From NCBI GenBank assembly GCA_019240375.1, contig JAFAYN010000203.1:1-11968 (forward strand): a stretch of 11,968 nucleotides of DNA. The letters are read 5' to 3'. The position numbers and the translations under genes were made by a program. Of this stretch, positions 137 through 8,354 are shown piece after piece. The DNA comes from Gemmatimonadota bacterium. GTDB taxonomy: Bacteria; Gemmatimonadota; Gemmatimonadetes; Longimicrobiales; Longimicrobiaceae. Numbering within the stretch: position 1 is the first letter of the stretch; the number at the start of each line of letters is the position of its first letter. The notes below the pieces were generated by a model that saw only the letters and a list, made by a program, of their open reading frames with translations, searched no databases and was not told where the DNA came from.

Positions 137-194
137 GTGGCGGGATCCGTGTGCAGCATTCTGGCGCGTAAAACCACGGGGAGCGGGGGTGGAT

Positions 195-253
195 TGTCGC
201 ATTGTGATGCAGAATGTACGGCGGGCGGAAATTGATTGTTTCGATGTGAGACA
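195..253 (+). promoter_or_regulatory. Tandem 17-bp dyads, predicted enhancer sites of the c-di-GMP operon
   Basis: Two imperfect palindromes share the pattern TGTCTCA-N3-TGAGACA. They are TGTCGCA-TTG-TGATGCA at 195-211 and TGTTTCG-ATG-TGAGACA at 237-253. They lie 42 bp apart (about four helical turns), centred near -143 and -101 relative to the start predicted from the sigma54 promoter at 319-335. The same pair with almost the same geometry occurs before the lipoprotein gene at 7126. Position and dyad form fit the upstream activating sequences of sigma54 enhancer-binding proteins, which commonly carry a Fis-type HTH. The binding protein is not proven. Confidence 0.6.
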
Positions 254-318
254 GTTGCCGGATTTCCGTTGCAGTCGCTGAAAACATCCGAACTTGTTCT
301 CCGCGAAAATCACGGAAT

Positions 319-335
319 CTGGTATGTGGGTTGCA
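319..335 (+). promoter_or_regulatory. Sigma54-type (-24/-12) promoter of the c-di-GMP operon
   Basis: CTGGTATGTGGGTTGCA carries the invariant GG (321-322) and GC (333-334) with exactly 10 bases between them. It also matches the TGGYAYG and TTGCA parts of the known consensus YTGGCACG-N4-TTGCW. The predicted transcript starts near 346. The promoter overlaps an in-frame ATG at 324, so translation of the first gene more likely begins at 435. Confidence is raised by the dyads at a fixed distance upstream. Confidence 0.62.
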
Positions 336-434
336 TCTGTTTCCGGAGCCGGACGAAGTGCGGAAAGCGCCTCCCCGCGCCCCGCCCCCGCAACCTTCCG
401 CGGCGGGTCCTCCCCGCTCCCCGAGCCGCTCCCG

Positions 435-3400
435 ATGGGAATGCCTGCAATCGTCCACCACGTCCTCGACGTGGACGCCTCCACCCGCGACCCGCTCACC
501 GGGGCGCTCCCCCGGTCCGCGCTCGCGCGGCTGCTGGCGCGCGAGGTAGTCGCCGCCGCGGAGGAGGGCCGGCCGCTCTCGCTGCTGGTGATCGACCTGG
601 ACCACTTCAAGAGCGTCAACGACGCCTTCGGGCACCTGCGCGGCGACCAGGTGCTCCAGGAGTTCGGGTTCCGGTGCCGCGTGGCGCTCCCGGCGGAAAG
701 CCACATGCTGCGCTACGGCGGGGACGAGTTCGTGCTCCTCCTCCCCGGGAGGGCGGCGGGAGAGGCCGCGGAGGTCGCGCGTGCGCTGGTGGGAGCGGTG
801 CGCGCGTCGCTGTTCGCGGGCGATCCTCCCCTGGCCCTTTCGCTCAGCATCGGGGTCGCTTCCTTCCCCGCCGACGGGAGGGATCCCGACGCGCTGTTCG
901 CCCGGGCGGACGCGCGCCTCTACCGGGCCAAGCGCGGGGGGCGCGGGCAGATCGTCGCGGGGGAGGGTGTCGTGGACCCGGGGGCGGCGGCGCACGGTAC
1001 CCGGCGCATCATCGAGCAGGACGAGGCGCTGGGGGAGCTGCACCTGTTCCTGTGCGCCCTCCCCAGGACCCGGCGCGGGCTGCTGCGGGTGGCGGGGACG
1101 GGCGGGTCAGGGAAGACGCGCGTGCTGGCGGAGGCCCGCACCGCCGCGGAGCTGCAGGGCTTCCACGTAGTCCCGCTGCAGGGGCGTCCCGCCTGGAGCG
1201 CCCGGATGCTCGGCGCGCTCCAGGAGGCCGGGGACGGGCTGGCGGCGCTCTTCGGGCAGGACCCCGCCGACGCCGCCCGGGAGCTGGCCTGCCGCACCGC
1301 GGAAGCCGGACGGAAGGGCGTGGTCTTCGTCGTCGACGACATCGACACCTTCGACCCGTACTCCATCGAGTACCTGCGCTCCGTCCTCCTCTCCGACCGG
1401 GTGGGGACGGCGGGGGTGATCTGCTCCGGAGAGCCGGAGCGCATTGCCCGGCTCCTCGACGTCCAGGCGCTCCCGGCCACGGTGGTCGAGCTGCGCCCGC
1501 TCCCGGCGCGGGGGCTGCGGACCTGGGTCCGCTACGAGCTGGCGCGCGAGCCCTCGCGCGACTTCCTCGCCTGGCTCGCCCGCGAGACGGGCGGGGTCCC
1601 GGCCCGGGTGGCCCGCGCGCTGGGGGCGGTGAGGGCGCTGGACCTGGCGGACGCCGTCGAGGGGGAGTGGCCCGCCGATCCCTCGGCGGCCGGCGCCCTC
1701 CGCGACGCCCTCGCCCCGGACTCCGGCGCCCCCCGCGCGCACCTCCCCGCGCCAGCGACGCTGCTGGTGGGGCGCCAGGCCGAGCTGCGCCGGCTGGCCG
1801 CGCTGCTGGCGGGGCACCGGCTGGTCACGCTCACCGGGCCCGGGGGGATCGGGAAGACCCGCCTGTCCGTGCAGGTCGCCCGGGAGTCGAGCGACCGCTA
1901 CCCCGACGGGATCTACCTGGCCCCGCTGGCCAGCCTGGAAGCCTCGGACTACGTCCTGTCGGCGGTGGCGCGGGCGCTGGACCTTTCCTTCGCCAGCGGG
2001 CGCGATCCGGAGCGGCAGCTCCTCGACTACCTGCGCGACAAGCGGCTCCTCCTCGTCCTGGACAACTTCGAGCACGTGATGGAGGGGGTGGGGCTGGTGT
2101 CCCGCATCCTGGAGTCGGCGCCGAAGGTCACGCTGCTGGTCACCTCGCGCGAGCGGCTGAACCTGCGCGAGGAGGTCGCCTTCCCCCTGGCCGAGATGCC
2201 CGTCCCCGAGCCCACCCGCGTGGGAGGGGCCGACCGGTACCCCTCGGTGCAGCTCTTCCTGGAGCGGGCGCGCGCCCACGCCGCGGACTTCCACCCCTCC
2301 GAGGCCGGGCTGGCGGCGGTGGCGCGGATCTGCGCCGCGCTGGGCGGGATCCCGCTGGGGATCGAGCTGGCGGCCTCGCTGGTCCGGGTGCTGGACGTGG
2401 AGGAGATCGCGGACGAGATCACCCGCGACATCGACGTGCTTGCCTCCCCGCTGCGCGACCTCCCCGACCGGCACCGCTCGCTGCGCGCCGTGTTCGAGTA
2501 CTCGTGGAAGCTCCTCGCCCCCGCCGAGCAGGAGGTGTTCCGCGCGGTGTCGGTGTTCGTGGGCGGCTTCCACCGCGAGGCGGCCGAGCGGGTGGCCGGG
2601 GCGCGGCTGACGGCGCTACGCGCCCTGGCCGACAAGTCGCTCCTGCGCCGCTCGCCCGAGGGGCGCTACGAGGTGCACGAGGTCTACCGCCGCTTCGGGA
2701 TCGAGCGCCTGGCCGCGGACCCGGCCGCGGCGGACGAGGTGCGCGGGCGCCACACCGCCTACTACCTGGAGCTGCTCCGGCAGGCGGCCCGCTCCGACAC
2801 CGCGACGCGGCGCAAGGCGCTCTTCGGGGTGATCGAGACCGAGATCGAGAACGTCCGCCTGGCCTGGAGGTCGGCGCTCGAGTCGGAGTCCGCGGCGGCG
2901 GTGGAGGCGGCGATGGACGGGCTCTTCCACTTCTACGACGTGCGCGGCTGGTACACCGAGGCGCGGCGCGTCTTCCGGCGGGCCGCCGGCGCCAAGTCCC
3001 TCCCCCCGGCGCTGGCCGCCTCGCTGCTCGCCCGCTCCGGCTACTTCGCCGTGCGCTCCGGCGACCTGGCGGAGGGCGCGGCCAGGCAGCGGCGGGCGCT
3101 GGAAGCGCTGCGCCGCGAGGGGGATTCGGCCGCCATGGCCTTTCCGCTCGCCACGCTGGGCCACATCTTCTTCCAGCGGGGGCGCTACGAGCCGGCCCGG
3201 CGGCTCTGCCGGGCCGCGCTCCGGCGCTACGCCCGCTCCGGCGACACCACCGGCAGGGCATGGTGCCTCAACGACCTGGGCGCCATCGCGCTGACCCGGG
3301 GACAGCACGACCGGGCCCGCCGCCTGATGGAGCGGAGCCTACGTCTCCGGCGCCGGACCGGCGACCTGGCGGGGGTGGCGCGCTGCACCAACAACCTGGC

Positions 3401-4004
3401 GACCATCGCCGACTACGTGGGCGACGTGGAGCGGGTCAAGCGCATGTTCGAGCGCAGCCTGGAGCTGGCGCGCGAGATCGGCGACCGCCGCACCACCGGC
3501 CACGCGCTCCACAACCTGGGGGTGTTCGCCCAGCGGCAGGCGGAGCGCACCGGCATGGTGGACGGGCTCTGGGAGGCCCGCGCCCTGCTGGAAGAGAGCC
3601 TCCGCATCTACCGCGACATCGGCGCCGAGTCGCACGTGGCGCTCACCGAGTCCAACCTGGGGCGGATCGCCGCGCAGCTCGGCCTGCGCGACGCGGCGGT
3701 CCGGCACTACCGCGAGGCGTTCGGGCTGGCCCGGCGGCTGGAGCTGGTCCCGCTCTCGCTGGCGGTGCTGGCGGGGGTGGGGGAGATCCTGGTGGAGGAG
3801 GACGCCGAGCTGGCGGCGCGGATCCTGGGATGCTGCGCCGCCGACCCCGCCACGGCGGACGACGTGCAGCAGCGGATCCGGGACTGCCGCTCGCGCCTGG
3901 GGGCGCCGGACGGCGCGGGCGAGGACGAGGAGCTGGACCCGCTGTTCCGGGAGGCGATGGAGCGCTTCCCGCACCCGGCGCCCCGGCTCCAGGTGCACCC
4001 ATGA
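435..4004 (+). CDS. Diguanylate cyclase fused to tandem P-loop NTPase (STAND-like) and TPR domains
   Basis: Predicted cytoplasmic signalling protein of 1189 residues that makes c-di-GMP under control of a large sensor region. The GGDEF domain spans about residues 19-170, with metal aspartates in IDLDHF (54, 56) and an intact GGDEF at 95-99. The product-inhibition RxxD site is replaced by PAES (86-89). A first NTPase module has Walker A GTGGSGKT (221-228) and Walker B VVFVVDDID (296-304). A second, AfsR/NB-ARC-like module has GPGGIGKT (468-475), LLLVLDN (538-544) and GGIPL (637-641), then a winged-helix-like part with a VHE motif near 747. TPR helices fill about 858-1103. No membrane segment is visible. 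The start is uncertain: ATG 435 is preferred because the sigma54 promoter covers the in-frame ATG 324 and TTG 294; ATG 441 is also possible. None has a strong ribosome site. The stop overlaps the next start (ATGA). The family assignment is firm; the signal sensed is unknown. Confidence 0.88.
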   Translation: MGMPAIVHHVLDVDASTRDPLTGALPRSALARLLAREVVAAAEEGRPLSLLVIDLDHFKSVNDAFGHLRGDQVLQEFGFRCRVALPAESHMLRYGGDEFVLLLPGRAAGEAAEVARALVGAVRASLFAGDPPLALSLSIGVASFPADGRDPDALFARADARLYRAKRGGRGQIVAGEGVVDPGAAAHGTRRIIEQDEALGELHLFLCALPRTRRGLLRVAGTGGSGKTRVLAEARTAAELQGFHVVPLQGRPAWSARMLGALQEAGDGLAALFGQDPADAARELACRTAEAGRKGVVFVVDDIDTFDPYSIEYLRSVLLSDRVGTAGVICSGEPERIARLLDVQALPATVVELRPLPARGLRTWVRYELAREPSRDFLAWLARETGGVPARVARALGAVRALDLADAVEGEWPADPSAAGALRDALAPDSGAPRAHLPAPATLLVGRQAELRRLAALLAGHRLVTLTGPGGIGKTRLSVQVARESSDRYPDGIYLAPLASLEASDYVLSAVARALDLSFASGRDPERQLLDYLRDKRLLLVLDNFEHVMEGVGLVSRILESAPKVTLLVTSRERLNLREEVAFPLAEMPVPEPTRVGGADRYPSVQLFLERARAHAADFHPSEAGLAAVARICAALGGIPLGIELAASLVRVLDVEEIADEITRDIDVLASPLRDLPDRHRSLRAVFEYSWKLLAPAEQEVFRAVSVFVGGFHREAAERVAGARLTALRALADKSLLRRSPEGRYEVHEVYRRFGIERLAADPAAADEVRGRHTAYYLELLRQAARSDTATRRKALFGVIETEIENVRLAWRSALESESAAAVEAAMDGLFHFYDVRGWYTEARRVFRRAAGAKSLPPALAASLLARSGYFAVRSGDLAEGAARQRRALEALRREGDSAAMAFPLATLGHIFFQRGRYEPARRLCRAALRRYARSGDTTGRAWCLNDLGAIALTRGQHDRARRLMERSLRLRRRTGDLAGVARCTNNLATIADYVGDVERVKRMFERSLELAREIGDRRTTGHALHNLGVFAQRQAERTGMVDGLWEARALLEESLRIYRDIGAESHVALTESNLGRIAAQLGLRDAAVRHYREAFGLARRLELVPLSLAVLAGVGEILVEEDAELAARILGCCAADPATADDVQQRIRDCRSRLGAPDGAGEDEELDPLFREAMERFPHPAPRLQVHP

Positions 4005-5080
4005 GCGGCCCGGCGGCGGTCGCCGCACCCGGGGCGCGCAGGCGGGCTCATTCTGCGGGAGTGACATTCGGCGTGACACAGACCACCGGCGGGGGGGCGG
4101 GAACGTCGTCCGGGGGCTTCGGCTTCCAGAGCATCGTCGGGGAGAGCCCGGAGCTGCGGCGGGCGCTCGCCCTGGCGCGCAAGCTCGCGGAGATGCGCGA
4201 CCCCGTCCTGATCGTGGGGGCCACGGGGACGGGGAAGGAATTGTTCGCGCGCGGGCTCCACTACGCGGGCCCCAGCGCCGCCGAGCCGTTCGTGGCGGTC
4301 AACTGCGCCGCCATCCCCGAGGCGCTGCTGGAGTCCGAGCTGTTCGGGCACGAGGTGGGCGCGTCCGCGGGCGCCGGCCCCAAGCGGGGGCTGCTGGAGC
4401 TGGCCGGGGCGGGGACGCTCTTCCTGGACGAGGTGGCGCAGCTGCCCCCCGCGGTGCAGCCCAAGCTGCTCCGCGTCCTGGAGGACCGGCGCATCCGCCG
4501 CCTTTCGGGCGAGGCGGAGATCGAGGTGCGCTGCCGGATCGTCACCGCCACCAACACCGTCCTGGAGGACGAGGTGGAGCGTGGCTCCTTCCGCGAGGAC
4601 CTGTTCCACCGGCTCAACGTGTTCCGGCTGGAGCTCCCCCGCCTGCGCGACCGCGGCGCCGACATCGAGCTGCTGGCCCGGCACTTCCTGGCGCGCATCG
4701 TCCACGACCGGGGCGGCGAGCCCCGGCGCCTCTCTCCCGACGCCATTGAGGCGCTGCACGTCCACGGCTGGCCCGGGAACGTGCGCGAGCTGCGCAACGT
4801 GCTGGAGCAGGCGGTGCTCCGCACCGAGGGGCCGGTGATCCGGGCCGAGCACCTGATCATCCAGCGCCGCACCTCCCACCCCGCCTCGCAGGGGGCGGCG
4901 GACTCCGGCTGCGAGATCCGCATCCCCGCCGCGGGGAAGACGCTGCTGGAGGTGGAGGAGGAGATGATCGCGATCGCGATGCGGCTCTCGGGGCAGAACC
5001 AGAGCGCGGCGGCGCGCATGCTGGGGATCAGCCGCGCCACGCTCCTGCGCAAGCTGGAGCGGCTGGGGCTCCGCGGATGA
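4001..5080 (+). CDS. Sigma54-activator-type AAA+ regulator with degenerate GAFTGA loop and Fis-like HTH
   Basis: A DNA-binding AAA+ protein of 359 residues. A low-complexity head (1-40) replaces the usual receiver or sensor domain. Walker A GATGTGKE (73-80), Walker B LFLDEV (140-145), sensor I TATN (182-185), the paired arginines of FREDLFHRL (R198, R204) and sensor II GNVREL (259-264) are present, so ATP binding and hydrolysis look possible. The sigma54-contact loop GAFTGA is GASAGA (120-125), and the stretch after it is one residue shorter than usual. A Fis-type HTH ends the protein (about 333-356). Family members with altered GAFTGA, such as TyrR, Rhodobacter HupR and VpsR, do not act as ordinary sigma54 activators, and VpsR binds c-di-GMP. 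Here the FleQ LFRS arginine is replaced (GFQS, 41-44). It overlaps both neighbours by ATGA and has an AGGTG ribosome site at 3991-3995. A c-di-GMP-effector role is inferred from context. Confidence 0.88.
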   Translation: MSGPAAVAAPGARRRAHSAGVTFGVTQTTGGGAGTSSGGFGFQSIVGESPELRRALALARKLAEMRDPVLIVGATGTGKELFARGLHYAGPSAAEPFVAVNCAAIPEALLESELFGHEVGASAGAGPKRGLLELAGAGTLFLDEVAQLPPAVQPKLLRVLEDRRIRRLSGEAEIEVRCRIVTATNTVLEDEVERGSFREDLFHRLNVFRLELPRLRDRGADIELLARHFLARIVHDRGGEPRRLSPDAIEALHVHGWPGNVRELRNVLEQAVLRTEGPVIRAEHLIIQRRTSHPASQGAADSGCEIRIPAAGKTLLEVEEEMIAIAMRLSGQNQSAAARMLGISRATLLRKLERLGLRG

Positions 5081-6747
5081 GCGGCGGCGAGCAGGGACTC
5101 GACGTGGCGCCGGAGACCGGGGCCGTCCAGGTGGTGGAGATCGTGTCGGCGGCGACGCTCCTGGACGACGGGAAGCTCGCCGAGCGGCAGGGGCAGCGCC
5201 GACTCGCGCGCGGCTGCTACGAGCAGGCGCTCTCGCTCCTGGCCGGCACCGACGCGCCCGCGCTGGCGGCCGAGGCCGCGCGCTCCATCGGGCGTACCTA
5301 CCGCGACGACGGCGACCTGGACGCCGCCGGGGAGGCCGCGCTCCTTTCCCTGGCCATCGCCGAGGCGGCCGGCGACGCGCGGGGGATCGCGCACGCGCTG
5401 AACCTGCAGGGGAGCCTGTGCCAGTTCCGGGGCGACCTGGACCACGCCCGCGCCCTGTACGAGCAGGCGCGCACGGTGGCGGCGCAGCCGGGCGACCTGC
5501 ACCTGGTGGCGATGATCGACCAGAACCTGGGGATCGTCTCCAACATCCGCGGCGACCTGGGGGCGGCGCTGGAAGCGTACCAGTCGGCGCTGGACGGCTA
5601 CCGCGCGCTGGGCCACACCGAGCACGCGGGGCTGGTCCTCAACAATATGGGGATGCTGTACACCGACCTGGGGCGCTGGGACGAGGCGGACGCCTGCCTG
5701 GCCGAAGCGTCGACCGCGTGCGAGACGGTGGGGAACCTGAGCGCGGCGGTGATGGTGCAGGTCAACCGGGCCGAGCTGCGGATCGCGCAGGAGGACTTCG
5801 CGCAGGCGAAGGAAGCGTGCGACCTGGCCTTCCGACTCGGGGAGCGGGTGGAGGACCCGCGGGCGCTGGGCGAGGTGCACAAGAACTACGGGATCATCTT
5901 CCGCGAGTCGCACTCGTACCGCCAGTCCGACGAGCACCTGTCGCGCGCCTTCGACCTGGCCACCCAGACCGGCGACCTCCTCCTCCTGGCCGAGACCGCG
6001 CGCGAGCAGGCGGAGCTGGCCTGGCGCCGGCAGCAGAACCAGAAGACGCTGCAGTGCCTGAACCTGGCGCACCGCACCTTCGCCCAGCTCCGGGCGCGGC
6101 GCGACCTGGCCGACATCCGCGGCCGGATGGAGAGCCTGGAAACGACCTTCCTGGAGATCGTCCGCCGGTGGGGCGAGTCGATCGAGTCGGCCGACCAGTA
6201 CACGCAGGGGCACTGCACCCGGGTGGCCGACTACGCCTGCCTCCTGGCCGAGGCCGCGGGGATGGACCGGGAAACGCTCTTCTGGTTCCGTATGGGGGCG
6301 CTGCTGCACGACGTGGGGAAGATCGTGGTCCCCGCAGGGATCCTGAACAAGCCGGGGTGGCTCACCCCCGAGGAGCGCGCCGTCATGGAGCGCCACCCCG
6401 ACGCCGGGGTCGAGCTGCTGGCCGAGGTGGAGTTCCCCTGGGACATCCGCCCCATGGTCCGCCACCACCACGAGCGCTGGGGCGGCGGCGGATATCCCAC
6501 CGGAATCGCCGGGGAGGAGATCCCGCTCTCCGCGCGCATCCTGTGCATCGCCGACGTGTGCGACGCGCTCTCGTCCGAGCGCCCTTACCGCAAGGCCAAC
6601 TCGCTGGACAAGAGCCTGGAGGTGATGAGCACCGAGATGGCCAGCCACTTCGACCCGGAGCTGCTGCGCCTCTTCCACGACCTGCACCAGCAGGGGAAGC
6701 TCGCCGAGATCGCGGGGGGAACACAGAGCTGGGCGCTGGCGAGCTGA
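5077..6747 (+). CDS. TPR-HD-GYP cyclic-di-GMP phosphodiesterase
   Basis: Predicted cytoplasmic c-di-GMP hydrolase of 556 residues. TPR-type helical repeats occupy about residues 35-345, with repeated NLG/GDL-type helix turns. A linker leads into an HD-GYP domain (about 360-540). Metal and catalytic residues are present: H379 in the GHCTRV stretch, H411-D412 with K415 (LLHDVGK), H440, H464-H465 and D493 (IADVCDAL). The signature HHExxDGxGYP reads HHERWGGGGYP, so the usual aspartate is glycine at 469 while GYP itself is intact. HD-GYP enzymes hydrolyse c-di-GMP to pGpG or GMP. The start ATG overlaps the stop of the AAA+ gene, implying translational coupling. It is the last gene before the terminator at 6776. 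Together with the GGDEF gene it makes a synthesis/breakdown pair, each with its own TPR sensor region. Activity is probable but unproven given the altered signature. Confidence 0.9.
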   Translation: MSGGEQGLDVAPETGAVQVVEIVSAATLLDDGKLAERQGQRRLARGCYEQALSLLAGTDAPALAAEAARSIGRTYRDDGDLDAAGEAALLSLAIAEAAGDARGIAHALNLQGSLCQFRGDLDHARALYEQARTVAAQPGDLHLVAMIDQNLGIVSNIRGDLGAALEAYQSALDGYRALGHTEHAGLVLNNMGMLYTDLGRWDEADACLAEASTACETVGNLSAAVMVQVNRAELRIAQEDFAQAKEACDLAFRLGERVEDPRALGEVHKNYGIIFRESHSYRQSDEHLSRAFDLATQTGDLLLLAETAREQAELAWRRQQNQKTLQCLNLAHRTFAQLRARRDLADIRGRMESLETTFLEIVRRWGESIESADQYTQGHCTRVADYACLLAEAAGMDRETLFWFRMGALLHDVGKIVVPAGILNKPGWLTPEERAVMERHPDAGVELLAEVEFPWDIRPMVRHHHERWGGGGYPTGIAGEEIPLSARILCIADVCDALSSERPYRKANSLDKSLEVMSTEMASHFDPELLRLFHDLHQQGKLAEIAGGTQSWALAS

Positions 6748-6775
6748 TCCCGTCCGCTCCCTTCCGGCGGTCCGA

Positions 6776-6812
6776 CCGCGCACGCCCCCGGGGCGTGCGC
6801 GGTTTTCTTTTT
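6776..6812 (+). terminator. Strong intrinsic terminator of the c-di-GMP operon
   Basis: CCGCGCACGCC (6776-6786) pairs perfectly with GGCGTGCGCGG (6792-6802) around a CCCGG loop. TTTTCTTTTT follows at 6803-6812. It begins 28 bases after the HD-GYP stop codon. The stem and T run are a textbook rho-independent terminator. Confidence 0.92.
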
Positions 6813-6932
6813 CCCACAAACTGTGGCGTCGCCGCAACAGTGCCCCTCCTCGTCCCGGGCTCCGGACCGCCCCCCGGTCCTTTTCGCGGGTGCATCGGAA
6901 TGAGGTGGACGGAGGCCGCCGGGAGCCGGCGG

Positions 6933-6992
6933 TGTCTCACAATGAGGCAGCCTGGTGGTCCGGGCAGAAATTTATTGTTTACTTATGAGGCA
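6933..6992 (+). promoter_or_regulatory. Tandem 17-bp dyads, predicted enhancer sites of the lipoprotein genes
   Basis: TGTCTCA-CAA-TGAGGCA (6933-6949) and TGTTTAC-TTA-TGAGGCA (6976-6992) are 43 bp apart. They match the pair at 195-253 in form and placement. Around the second copy, similarity to the first region extends over 32 bases (6963-6994 against 224-255, 25 identical). The dyads are centred near -145 and -102 from the start predicted by the promoter at 7060-7074. The left arm of the copy at 6976 is weak. They are predicted binding sites for one Fis-HTH enhancer-binding protein. Confidence 0.6.
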
Positions 6993-7059
6993 GTATACTG
7001 AAAAATGGTGTAGTATATGGAATAAGCCGATGGATGACGGAAGCAGTTTTTGGGAAATA

Positions 7060-7074
7060 TGGCACGAGCATTGC
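7060..7074 (+). promoter_or_regulatory. Sigma54-type (-24/-12) promoter of the lipoprotein genes
   Basis: TGGCACGAGCATTGC is a near-perfect match to the sigma54 consensus TGGCACG-N4-TTGC, with GG at 7061-7062 and GC at 7073-7074 separated by 10 bases. Predicted +1 is near 7086, giving a leader of about 40 bases with a GGAGAA ribosome site (7115-7120) before ATG 7126. Of the sigma54-like sites in the window this is the best match. Confidence 0.78.
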
Positions 7075-7125
7075 CGTGTGTGTGGGCTCATTGGAGGGCG
7101 GTGTACCTGAACCTGGAGAACGATC

Positions 7126-7734
7126 ATGAAGAGTCCCATCACCCGGATCGGCAGCCTTCTCCTGGGGCTGACGCTGGTCGCCGCGGCCTGCAGCGAGAGC
7201 CCGGAATCGCCCCGCCTCACCGCCCCGGCCCAGACGCAGCCGCGGAAGGCGCTGGATCCGGTGGCCACCCTGGCGACGGTGGGGGTACTCACGCGCAGTG
7301 TCCCGCTGGCGAGCGACATCTCGGTGACGGTGCCGGTCACCAAGCAGGGCGGGACCATCCAGATCCAGGAGGCGGGGATCACGGTCATCTTCCCCCAGAA
7401 CGCCCTCCAGCCGCCGGCCAAGCAGCACCAGGTGGACGTGACGGTGACCGCGCTCAAGGGCGGTCAGGTCGCCTACACCTTCGAGCCGCACGGGCTCGTC
7501 TTCCGGGTGCCGGTGACCATCAAGCAGAGCCTGAAGGGGACCAACGCCTTCAAGCTGGCGAACCAGCTCTCCCTGGAAGGGGCGTACTTCCCCAGCCTGG
7601 CGGACCTGTCCACGATCACCTCGACGGCGACGGTGAGCGAGTTCCAGCCCACCTCGGTCGACGTCAGCAACGCGAAGATCACCTTCACGGTCGACCACTT
7701 CTCCGGCTACCTGGTCGCCACCGGGCGCCGGTGA
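7126..7734 (+). CDS. ZU5-like domain lipoprotein
   Basis: A predicted exported lipoprotein of 202 residues. A lysine/arginine start and hydrophobic core (8-21) lead to a lipobox-like VAAAC, with the lipidated cysteine at 22. The mature part begins with a Ser/Pro-rich linker. Residues about 70-140 resemble a ZU5 beta-sandwich: a GGTI turn, an ITVIFPQNAL strand and loop, and an EPHGLVFRVPVTI strand pair. The C-terminus ends in VDHFSGYLVATGR, a tail repeated in the next gene. The start has a good GGAGAA ribosome site at 7115-7120. It is the first gene after the sigma54-type promoter at 7060 and its dyads, so expression is probably tied to the same regulator as the upstream operon. Function is unknown; an envelope structural or protein-binding role is a guess from the fold. 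Confidence 0.85.
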   Translation: MKSPITRIGSLLLGLTLVAAACSESPESPRLTAPAQTQPRKALDPVATLATVGVLTRSVPLASDISVTVPVTKQGGTIQIQEAGITVIFPQNALQPPAKQHQVDVTVTALKGGQVAYTFEPHGLVFRVPVTIKQSLKGTNAFKLANQLSLEGAYFPSLADLSTITSTATVSEFQPTSVDVSNAKITFTVDHFSGYLVATGRR

Positions 7735-7780
7735 CCGGCGGATGCGGAACGTTTCTCTCCCCGTACCTCCGGAGCGGCAG

Positions 7781-8023
7781 GTGAACCGCCCGGGGAGGAT
7801 CGTCCTCCCGGCCCTCGTGGTGCTGGCCGCGGCCTCGTGCGGGCGCGCGGAGCCGCCCACCGCCGCGAGCGTCCCCTCGCGGGACGCGGTGGAGGCCGTG
7901 AGCACCGCGTCACCCCTCCGGAGCGCCCCGACGGGCGGCCCTTCGGGCGTCACCCGGACGCTGGACAGAAAAGGGGGCGATCTCGCCCGCTTCTCGGGCT
8001 ACGCCATCGCCACCGGGATGTAG
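7781..8023 (+). CDS. Short lipoprotein sharing the C-terminal tail of its neighbour
   Basis: A small predicted lipoprotein of 80 residues. GTG 7781 is chosen over the in-frame ATG 7742 because GGAG (7771-7774) lies 6 bases before it. It also gives a clean signal sequence: positive start, hydrophobic IVLPALVVLAAA, and cysteine at residue 20 (AASC). The mature part is a short disordered linker ending in FSGYAIATGM, matching FSGYLVATG of the preceding protein, while the ZU5-like core is absent. It lies 46 bases after the first lipoprotein gene and before a terminator, so both are probably co-transcribed. It may be a degenerate paralogue produced by internal deletion or a genuine small lipoprotein. 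No function can be assigned. Confidence 0.6.
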   Translation: MNRPGRIVLPALVVLAAASCGRAEPPTAASVPSRDAVEAVSTASPLRSAPTGGPSGVTRTLDRKGGDLARFSGYAIATGM

Positions 8024-8047
8024 ATAGGGTCCGGGAGCAGCGGACGA

Positions 8048-8079
8048 GGGGGGGCGAGACCCGGTCTCGCCCCCCCTTT
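8048..8079 (+). terminator. Intrinsic terminator after the lipoprotein pair
   Basis: A 13-bp perfect GC-rich stem (8048-8060 with 8064-8076) has a 3-base loop and is followed by TTTCTCGT. The T run is short, but the stem is very stable. It lies 25 bases after the stop of the short lipoprotein gene and separates it from the plug-like gene. Confidence 0.75.
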
Positions 8080-8155
8080 CTCGTCCCGCTCCGGCTGTCC
8101 TGCACCGGTACGCGGTGTCCCGGAGCGCTACACTCGCGGGGCGTGGAAGGTGAGA

Positions 8156-8181
8156 CAGATCCCCTGTTTCCCCGGGATCTG
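8156..8181. repeat. Perfect 8-bp inverted repeat upstream of the plug-like gene
   Basis: CAGATCCC (8156-8163) and GGGATCTG (8174-8181) are exact reverse complements with a 10-base spacer. The arms are about 18 bp apart centre to centre, compatible with a dimeric repressor operator or an RNA hairpin. The next gene starts at 8355. I see no convincing -35/-10 or -24/-12 element in 8087-8354. Confidence 0.4.
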
Positions 8182-8354
8182 CGACGTGGAGCCGGAGCAC
8201 GCGGATTGCATGGCCTGGAGGGGACACGACAGCTATGGGACGGTGCCGCCCCGTAACTGCCACGGCGGATCTCCCCGGTCCGCCGAAGCCACCACCATCA
8301 GCACGTGTGGCGGGCACCCGGAGCAGCGGTCCGGGGCGCCGTCAGGAGGGCTTC

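What the first reader, a model, noticed from the sequence alone, without database searches (positions are those of the whole stretch)
195..7086. Two sigma54 promoters with the same double-dyad enhancer layout
Seen in the sequence: 17-bp dyads at 195-211, 237-253, 6933-6949 and 6976-6992 fit TGTCTCA-N3-TGAGACA. They form two pairs spaced 42 and 43 bp. From the second dyad of each pair to the -24 GG of a sigma54-type promoter is 84 and 85 bp. A 32-base stretch around the second dyads is 25/32 identical (224-255 against 6963-6994). Known: sigma54 promoters depend on enhancer-binding proteins at -80 to -150. Inference: one regulator controls both the c-di-GMP operon and the ZU5-like lipoprotein pair, which makes the lipoproteins a probable output of the signalling module.
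Basis: partly seen in the sequence, partly recalled or inferred. Interest (0 to 1): 0.8.

Follow-up and report, generated by a model that had tools for sequence, protein, structure and literature searches.

The report
Paired sigma-54 promoters, likely borrowed activator
Two neighbouring gene units in a Gemmatimonadota-type bacterium, one for a signalling molecule and one for a surface lipoprotein, carry matching genetic switches of a kind that recurs in related bacteria, but the regulator encoded beside them has lost the part normally needed to work such switches, so another regulator may do it.

Summary
In detail: the four dyads, both sigma54 boxes and the 42/43 and 84/85 bp spacings are where stated and beat shuffled controls. 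Relatives carry a module (ZU5-type lipoprotein, TPR protein, AAA+ regulator EBP1, TPR-HD-GYP) whose promoter has the same anatomy, a sigma54 box with 17-bp 7-3-7 dyads upstream: 34 hits in 43 loci against 0-1 per shuffle. Co-control of lipoprotein and c-di-GMP genes is therefore well supported. The proposed regulator is not: the AAA+ protein at 4001-5080 has GASAGA in place of the sigma54-contacting GAFTGA loop and groups (weakly, 0.54) with five others that lost it. The window's dyads lack the AA typical of EBP1 boxes (0 of 8 half-sites against 53 of 64) and resemble boxes of another regulator, EBP2 (0 of 30), which has an intact loop and is encoded elsewhere in this genome. Against this: one variant of the EBP2 matrix does not favour EBP2, and the other loop-less genome with DNA keeps EBP1-type dyads. 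Best reading: a conserved sigma54 promoter type, perhaps captured here by EBP2. The second lipoprotein is an internally deleted copy.

The parts
152..168 (+). possible weak extra dyad in phase (43 bp before 195)
   Evidence: tentative, rank 37 (EBP1 matrix) and 30 (EBP2 matrix) in the window
195..211 (+). distal dyad of the c-di-GMP operon promoter, TGTCGCATTGTGATGCA
   Evidence: (rank 9 of 11,952 with a matrix from other genomes)
237..253 (+). proximal dyad of the c-di-GMP operon promoter, TGTTTCGATGTGAGACA, 84 nt before the -24 GG
   Evidence: (rank 1)
320..335 (+). sigma54 -24/-12 box TGGTATGTGGGTTGCA; start site expected near 346 (inferred)
   Evidence: second best of the window
435..4004 (+). 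GGDEF - NB-ARC/STAND - TPR protein (start codon chosen by me)
4001..5080 (+). EBP1: AAA+ regulator with Sigma54_activat, AAA lid and HTH_8; overlaps both neighbours by ATGA
4358..4375 (+). degenerate sigma54-contact loop, GASAGA at residues 120-125 where GAFTGA or GAFTDA is expected
5077..6747 (+). TPR - HD-GYP phosphodiesterase-type protein
6774..6804 (+). intrinsic-terminator-like stem (14 pairs, T run) between the operon and the lipoprotein gene
6891..6907 (+). possible weak extra dyad in phase (42 bp before 6933)
   Evidence: tentative
6933..6949 (+). distal dyad of the lipoprotein promoter, TGTCTCACAATGAGGCA
   Evidence: (rank 8)
6976..6992 (+). proximal dyad of the lipoprotein promoter, TGTTTACTTATGAGGCA, 85 nt before the -24 GG
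   Evidence: (rank 17)
7060..7075 (+). sigma54 -24/-12 box TGGCACGAGCATTGCC; start site expected near 7086 (inferred)
   Evidence: best of the window
7126..7734 (+). LP1: lipoprotein with predicted ZU5 fold
   Evidence: best PDB matches are ankyrin ZU5 domains; three homologues tested pass the Pfam ZU5 cut-off, LP1 itself had no Pfam match
7742..8023 (+). LP2: internally deleted lipoprotein copy (signal peptide, N-terminal part and C-terminal FSGYxxATG tail, no ZU5 core)

Best explanation
The two regions are sigma54 promoters, each read by an enhancer-binding protein (EBP) bound at two 17-bp dyads 42-43 bp (about four helical turns) apart, the nearer one starting 84-85 bp before the -24 GG. 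They are this genome's version of a promoter found before a module of ZU5-type lipoprotein, TPR protein, EBP1 and TPR-HD-GYP genes in relatives. Here the module is split into a GGDEF/EBP1/HD-GYP operon and a separate lipoprotein unit, each with such a promoter, so both would be switched on together. Shown: sequences, spacing, recurrence of promoter anatomy and gene linkage, loss of the GAFTGA loop in EBP1. Inferred: binding, activation, and that the activator is EBP2 (G000:C463, loop GAFTDA intact) or a protein of the same DNA specificity, while EBP1, which keeps Walker A, Walker B, arginine fingers and HTH, no longer activates sigma54 by itself and may act as modulator or repressor. About 0.9 for sigma54 plus a shared EBP, about 0.5 for EBP2 as that EBP; the stated confidence is for the whole statement.
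For: (controls; ranks with an outside matrix); 19 of 27 lipoprotein genes, the window's included, have a sigma54 score of 13.4 or more at -56 to -88; expected 0.007 per 75-nt window; palindromic motif from 18 other promoters, log-likelihood 245 and 251 against 41-78 in 14 shuffles; 34 sigma54-plus-dyad hits in 43 loci, 0 or 1 in each of 10 shuffles; 15 of the 20 loci not used to train the matrix have one; module gene order. GASAGA; 8 of 136 aligned EBPs lost the loop, six of them (window, G014, P0002, P0004, P0006, P0013) grouped with the window. EBP2 loci carry a box TGTNNCG-N3-CGNNACA (170 against 33-43 in six shuffles; after the stop codon alone 115 against 36-41); window dyads score 14.1, 19.2, 14.3, 5.7 on the EBP2 matrix and 8.9, 12.5, 8.9, 7.6 on the EBP1 matrix; best EBP1 sites of the 34 hits score 12.9-21.8 and best EBP2 sites of 18 of 21 loci 14.5-20.8 on their own matrix. 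AA at half-site positions 4-5 in 53 of 64 EBP1 half-sites (32 of 36 in loci not used in training), 0 of 30 EBP2, 0 of 8 window. PMC3162934 (passages) says changes in GAFTGA, above all of the central F and T, mostly abolish activity.
Against: An EBP2 matrix made only from dyads after the EBP2 stop codon scores the window dyads 7.1, 14.1, 6.7, 2.2 and does not favour EBP2 over EBP1; much of the EBP2 advantage rests on a dyad that overlaps the end of the EBP2 gene. The sigma54 boxes of the EBP2 loci are weaker (12.0-13.2 in ten loci). G014, the other loop-less genome with DNA at hand, keeps EBP1-type dyads and also has EBP2. Position 7 of the window half-sites is A in 6 of 8, in EBP2 sites in 7 of 30 and in EBP1 sites in 32 of 64. 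Sites compared were the best-scoring per locus, partly circular. 8 of 32 loci with EBP1 have no sigma54-plus-dyad hit. The grouping of the loop-less EBPs has support of only 0.54 (0.93 with the intact P0008 included). Nothing is experimental.
Confidence: 0.5

Rival explanations
1. EBP1, the operon's own AAA+ protein, is the activator (autoregulation), as its position in relatives suggests; its DNA specificity drifted from TGNAACG to TGTCTCA and its odd loop still works, or works with a GAFTGA-bearing partner in a mixed ring.
For: In relatives dyads go with the linked EBP1 gene: 24 of 32 loci with EBP1 have a sigma54-plus-dyad hit, 0 of 9 stretches without it (p 7e-5); two further stretches without EBP1 that have hits were set aside because the contig ends, with them it is 2 of 11 (p 0.0015; counted, tested). 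In G207 and G384 the nearest module gene behind the promoter is EBP1 itself (L281, L283). Walker A, Walker B, arginine fingers and HTH_8 are intact.
Against: GASAGA lacks the F and T of the loop and one residue; 0 of 8 half-sites have the AA of EBP1 boxes. The window does not reach the hit threshold.
Confidence: 0.25
2. EBP1 is a loop-less regulator that binds the dyads to repress or antagonise the true activator, or works with sigma70, like Caulobacter or Rhodobacter NtrC.
For: Six grouped loop-less EBPs, five with all checked ATPase motifs (G014 has lost the first arginine finger); precedents in PMC10274813 (passages).
Against: Both units keep good sigma54 boxes, and no sigma70-type promoter was found at 1-600 or 6700-8200 (a simple E. 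coli-type consensus scan). Whether EBP1 binds these dyads is unknown. It does not exclude activation by EBP2.
Confidence: 0.2
3. Chance: AT-rich intergenic stretches that happen to contain dyad-like words and GG-N10-GC.
For: Loose dyad matches in the genome are at control level; the literal sequence is at control level in the order; the dyads are imperfect.
Against: Shuffle controls and outside-matrix ranks, recurring anatomy in relatives.
Confidence: 0.04

Closest known systems
sigma54 promoters with NtrC-type EBPs bound at tandem upstream dyads (general knowledge, recalled)
   Same: -24/-12 box, tandem dyads about 80-130 bp upstream, AAA+ HTH_8 regulator
   Different: targets are a ZU5 lipoprotein and GGDEF/HD-GYP genes; the linked AAA+ protein has lost the contact loop
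Caulobacter and Rhodobacter NtrC lacking GAFTGA (PMC10274813, passages seen)
   Same: EBP family member with the loop lost
   Different: those are two-component response regulators reported to act at sigma70 promoters; EBP1 has no receiver domain by Pfam and its own promoter looks sigma54-type
EBP homologues with defective GAFTGA called non-functional for sigma54, e.g. TyrR, HupR (PMC3162934, passages seen)
   Same: substitutions or deletion in the loop
   Different: the loss here sits inside a family of mostly intact EBPs with a recurring module and promoter
ZU5 domains of ankyrin and UNC5
   Same: predicted fold; Pfam ZU5 in homologues
   Different: here a 202-residue bacterial lipoprotein; fold similarity is moderate (TM-score about 0.4-0.45)

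Membership tests
sigma54-dependent promoter | GG-N10-GC in TGGCAC-N5-TTGC context | tested here: met
   two best sites of the window
sigma54-dependent promoter | rpoN in the genome | tested here: met
   E 2.4e-64
sigma54-dependent promoter | upstream activator sites, conserved in relatives | tested here: met
   (architecture; the literal sequence is not)
sigma54-dependent promoter | transcription start about 12 nt after the -12 GC, dependent on rpoN | not testable with these tools
   no expression data
sigma54 activator (protein 4001-5080) | Sigma54_activat AAA+ domain with Walker A/B and arginine fingers | tested here: met
sigma54 activator (protein 4001-5080) | GAFTGA loop | tested here: not met
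   GASAGA, one residue deleted
EBP1 box (YGNAACG-N3-CGTTNCR) | AA at half-site positions 4-5 | tested here: not met
   0 of 8, against 53 of 64 in relatives
EBP2 box (TGTNNCG-N3-CGNNACA) | T at 3, no A at 5, C at 6, G or A at 7 | tested here: inconclusive
   fits on the full matrix, no advantage on the post-stop matrix
ZU5 domain (LP1) | fold | tested here: met
ZU5 domain (LP1) | Pfam ZU5 score over cut-off | tested here: not met
   LP1 itself gave no match at E 0.001; three of three homologues tested did

The most novel reading that the evidence does not exclude
Regulatory capture: in a Longimicrobiaceae-type lineage a sigma54 activator (EBP1) lost its sigma54-contact loop while its module kept sigma54 promoters, because the promoter dyads were rewritten into the box of a sister activator (EBP2) that already drives another lipoprotein gene. 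EBP1 stays as a DNA- or protein-binding AAA+ modulator of the c-di-GMP and ZU5-lipoprotein programme.
Probability: 0.38. Interest if true: 0.75.

Novelty: new variant of a known kind. Interest (0 to 1): 0.6.

Why it matters
It defines, from sequence, a sigma54 promoter class of Gemmatimonadota-type bacteria with its box, its probable regulator gene and a surface lipoprotein target tied to HD-GYP enzymes; none of the papers listed by my searches (short lists out of larger hit sets) describes it. It also offers a natural series of EBPs before and after loss of the GAFTGA loop, with promoters at hand for two of the loop-less ones, so that the fate of a loop-less activator and its binding sites becomes directly testable.

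Tried and rejected
The literal pattern TGAGNCA plus sigma54 box over 154 genomes of the order gave only background. A strict EBP1 box plus sigma54 pattern over 394 genomes of the class gave 25 sites in 18 genomes against 7 in the reversed control; several lie at the module, the others were not followed up. The genome-contig scan with an EBP alignment returned EBPs of many phyla, the best 48% identical, and was not used. The GGDEF-STAND protein has a near full-length relative in G144:C195, but no module gene and no sigma54-plus-dyad site was found in that 18-kb stretch. The nine stretches with a lipoprotein relative but no EBP1 have no good EBP1 dyad (best 2.5 to 8.4, L152 none over threshold) and no good EBP2 dyad (best 7.6). 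Coding constraint was considered for the EBP2 dyad at the end of the EBP2 gene: in the ten loci with that dyad the gene ends in GTN-NCG-GAR-TGA with P, A or S encoded by NCG, and the bases after TGA read GACA (8) or TACA (2), which speaks for a constraint on the DNA; the motif after the stop alone is also far above shuffles.

Caveats of method: the sigma54 weights and consensus are recalled, not fitted; sigma54 and dyad thresholds were set after looking; the EBP1 matrix was trained on 18 promoter regions of loci that are also in the 43-locus scan; the real set had 60 seeds and the shuffles 30, repeated with equal seeds. Eight of 32 loci with EBP1 have no hit (window, L087, L162, L284, L285, L286, L290, L293), some because the contig ends. 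In some searches only the best candidates per genome were scored (see their tables). Site lists were picked by hand and left out eight loci; one search repeats the count with all 34 hits.
Full report
OBSERVATION. The dyads, boxes, spacings and identity are as reported. Shuffle controls and an outside matrix put them beyond chance. The own genome (3.46 Mb, 632 contigs, 61.9% complete) has rpoN and 12 Sigma54_activat matches, ten of them strong. Dyads with at most one mismatch occur at three places only: 237, 6933 and C463:1143. The pattern TGAGNCA plus sigma54 box finds both window promoters and one further site (reversed control 1).

SURROUNDINGS. The first unit encodes GGDEF-NB-ARC-TPR (435-4004), an AAA+ HTH_8 protein (4001-5080) and TPR-HD-GYP (5077-6747), with overlapping ends. 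A strong terminator-like stem follows at 6774-6804, and no sigma70-type promoter was found at 6700-8200 or 1-600, so the lipoprotein gene probably needs its own promoter. LP1 (7126-7734) is predicted with mean pLDDT 85 and matches ZU5 domains of ankyrin best, then UNC5 (best E 3.8e-5, TM-score about 0.4-0.45); three of three homologues tested pass the Pfam ZU5 cut-off, LP1 itself does not match. LP2 (7742-8023) has the signal peptide, the N-terminal part and the C-terminal tail of LP1 but no core: a deleted copy.

THE MODULE IN RELATIVES. LP1 relatives occur in 19 of 154 genomes of the order and close EBP1 relatives (E up to 1e-84) in 33 of 394 genomes of the class. Around these genes the order lipoprotein, TPR, EBP1, TPR-HD-GYP recurs, with variations. 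Before the lipoprotein gene there is usually a sigma54 box (19 of 27 genes, window included; two more at -137 and -140, six without) and, in loci with EBP1, upstream dyads YGNAACG-N3-CGTTNCR, found without supervision from 18 regions that exclude the window. A scan of 43 loci gives 34 sigma54-plus-dyad hits, 29 of them directly before a gene of the module by my reading, and 0 or 1 in each of ten shuffles. In family f7 a dyad starts 79-82 nt before the GG in 11 of the 14 loci with a hit; the window has 84 and 85. Loci with EBP1 have a hit in 24 of 32 cases, stretches without it in 0 of 9 (2 of 11 with two stretches cut at the contig end). The window itself does not reach the thresholds of that scan, because its dyads score 10.3 at most on that matrix.

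THE REGULATOR. EBP1 of the window reads GASAGA where intact relatives read GAFTGA or GAFTDA. Among 136 aligned EBPs eight lost the loop; six group together with the window (support 0.54; 0.93 when one intact sister is included), and P0009 with P0017 are a second case. Walker A and B are kept in all eight and the arginine fingers in seven. G014 (98% complete) has one EBP1, loop-less; its next best EBP is at E 2e-76, with all 73 candidates scored. Passages of PMC3162934 say that changes of the loop mostly abolish activity, and passages of PMC10274813 that loop-less NtrC proteins act at sigma70 promoters.

A SECOND REGULATOR. The third dyad place of the genome lies at the end of the gene of EBP2 (C463, GAFTDA), 78 nt before a GG-N10-GC and ahead of a lipoprotein gene. 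I compared 21 EBP2 loci (C463, same-genus C320 and 19 more): 18 have a candidate sigma54 box (score 11.9 or more, a low bar) within 260 nt after the stop, ten of them at +63 to +67. Their box TGTNNCG-N3-CGNNACA comes out of 18 regions without the window's genus, and the best site scores at least 14.5 in 18 of 21 loci, among them the two not used in training (18.8 and 14.5). In half-site positions 4-5 the window agrees with EBP2 and not with EBP1: AA in 53 of 64 EBP1, 0 of 30 EBP2 and 0 of 8 window half-sites. The score comparison depends on which EBP2 dyads train the matrix, and G014 does not follow the pattern. I therefore put EBP2, or a protein with its specificity, at about even odds.

PRINT. 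None of the papers listed by searches (10 of 254 shown; 15 of 768; 8 of 487; 4 of 4; 6 of 79; 1 of 1) describes this module by title or start of abstract. PMC12316311, a survey of sigma54 regulons, does not contain words beginning Gemmatimon, HD-GYP or c-di-GMP in its main text. Only passages of PMC10274813, PMC12316311 and PMC3162934 were seen.

Noticed in passing
G000:C463:1-2231 (L089) and G004:C320 (L091): EBP2, lipoprotein and TPR genes in a row, with a GG-N10-GC 63-64 nt after the EBP2 stop and two 17-bp dyads 19 bp apart.
   Followed up: yes
7742-8023; L088 (G014:C72): LP2 is an internally deleted lipoprotein copy; G014:C72 has four lipoprotein genes of this family.
   Followed up: partly
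L161 (G004:C205) and L168 (G144:C277): Other EBPs (GAFTGA) also sit next to LP1-like lipoprotein genes with sigma54 boxes at -60 and -68 but without EBP1 dyads.
   Followed up: no
L087 (G005:C24:2969-5548): The TPR-HD-GYP protein is fused to a C-terminal GGDEF domain there.
   Followed up: no
G144:C195:18635-22069: Near full-length relative (39%) of the GGDEF-STAND-TPR protein away from the module.
   Followed up: partly
L166:9023, L283:3605, L294:4029: Sigma54-plus-dyad hits not in front of a recognised module gene; possible further regulon members.
   Followed up: no
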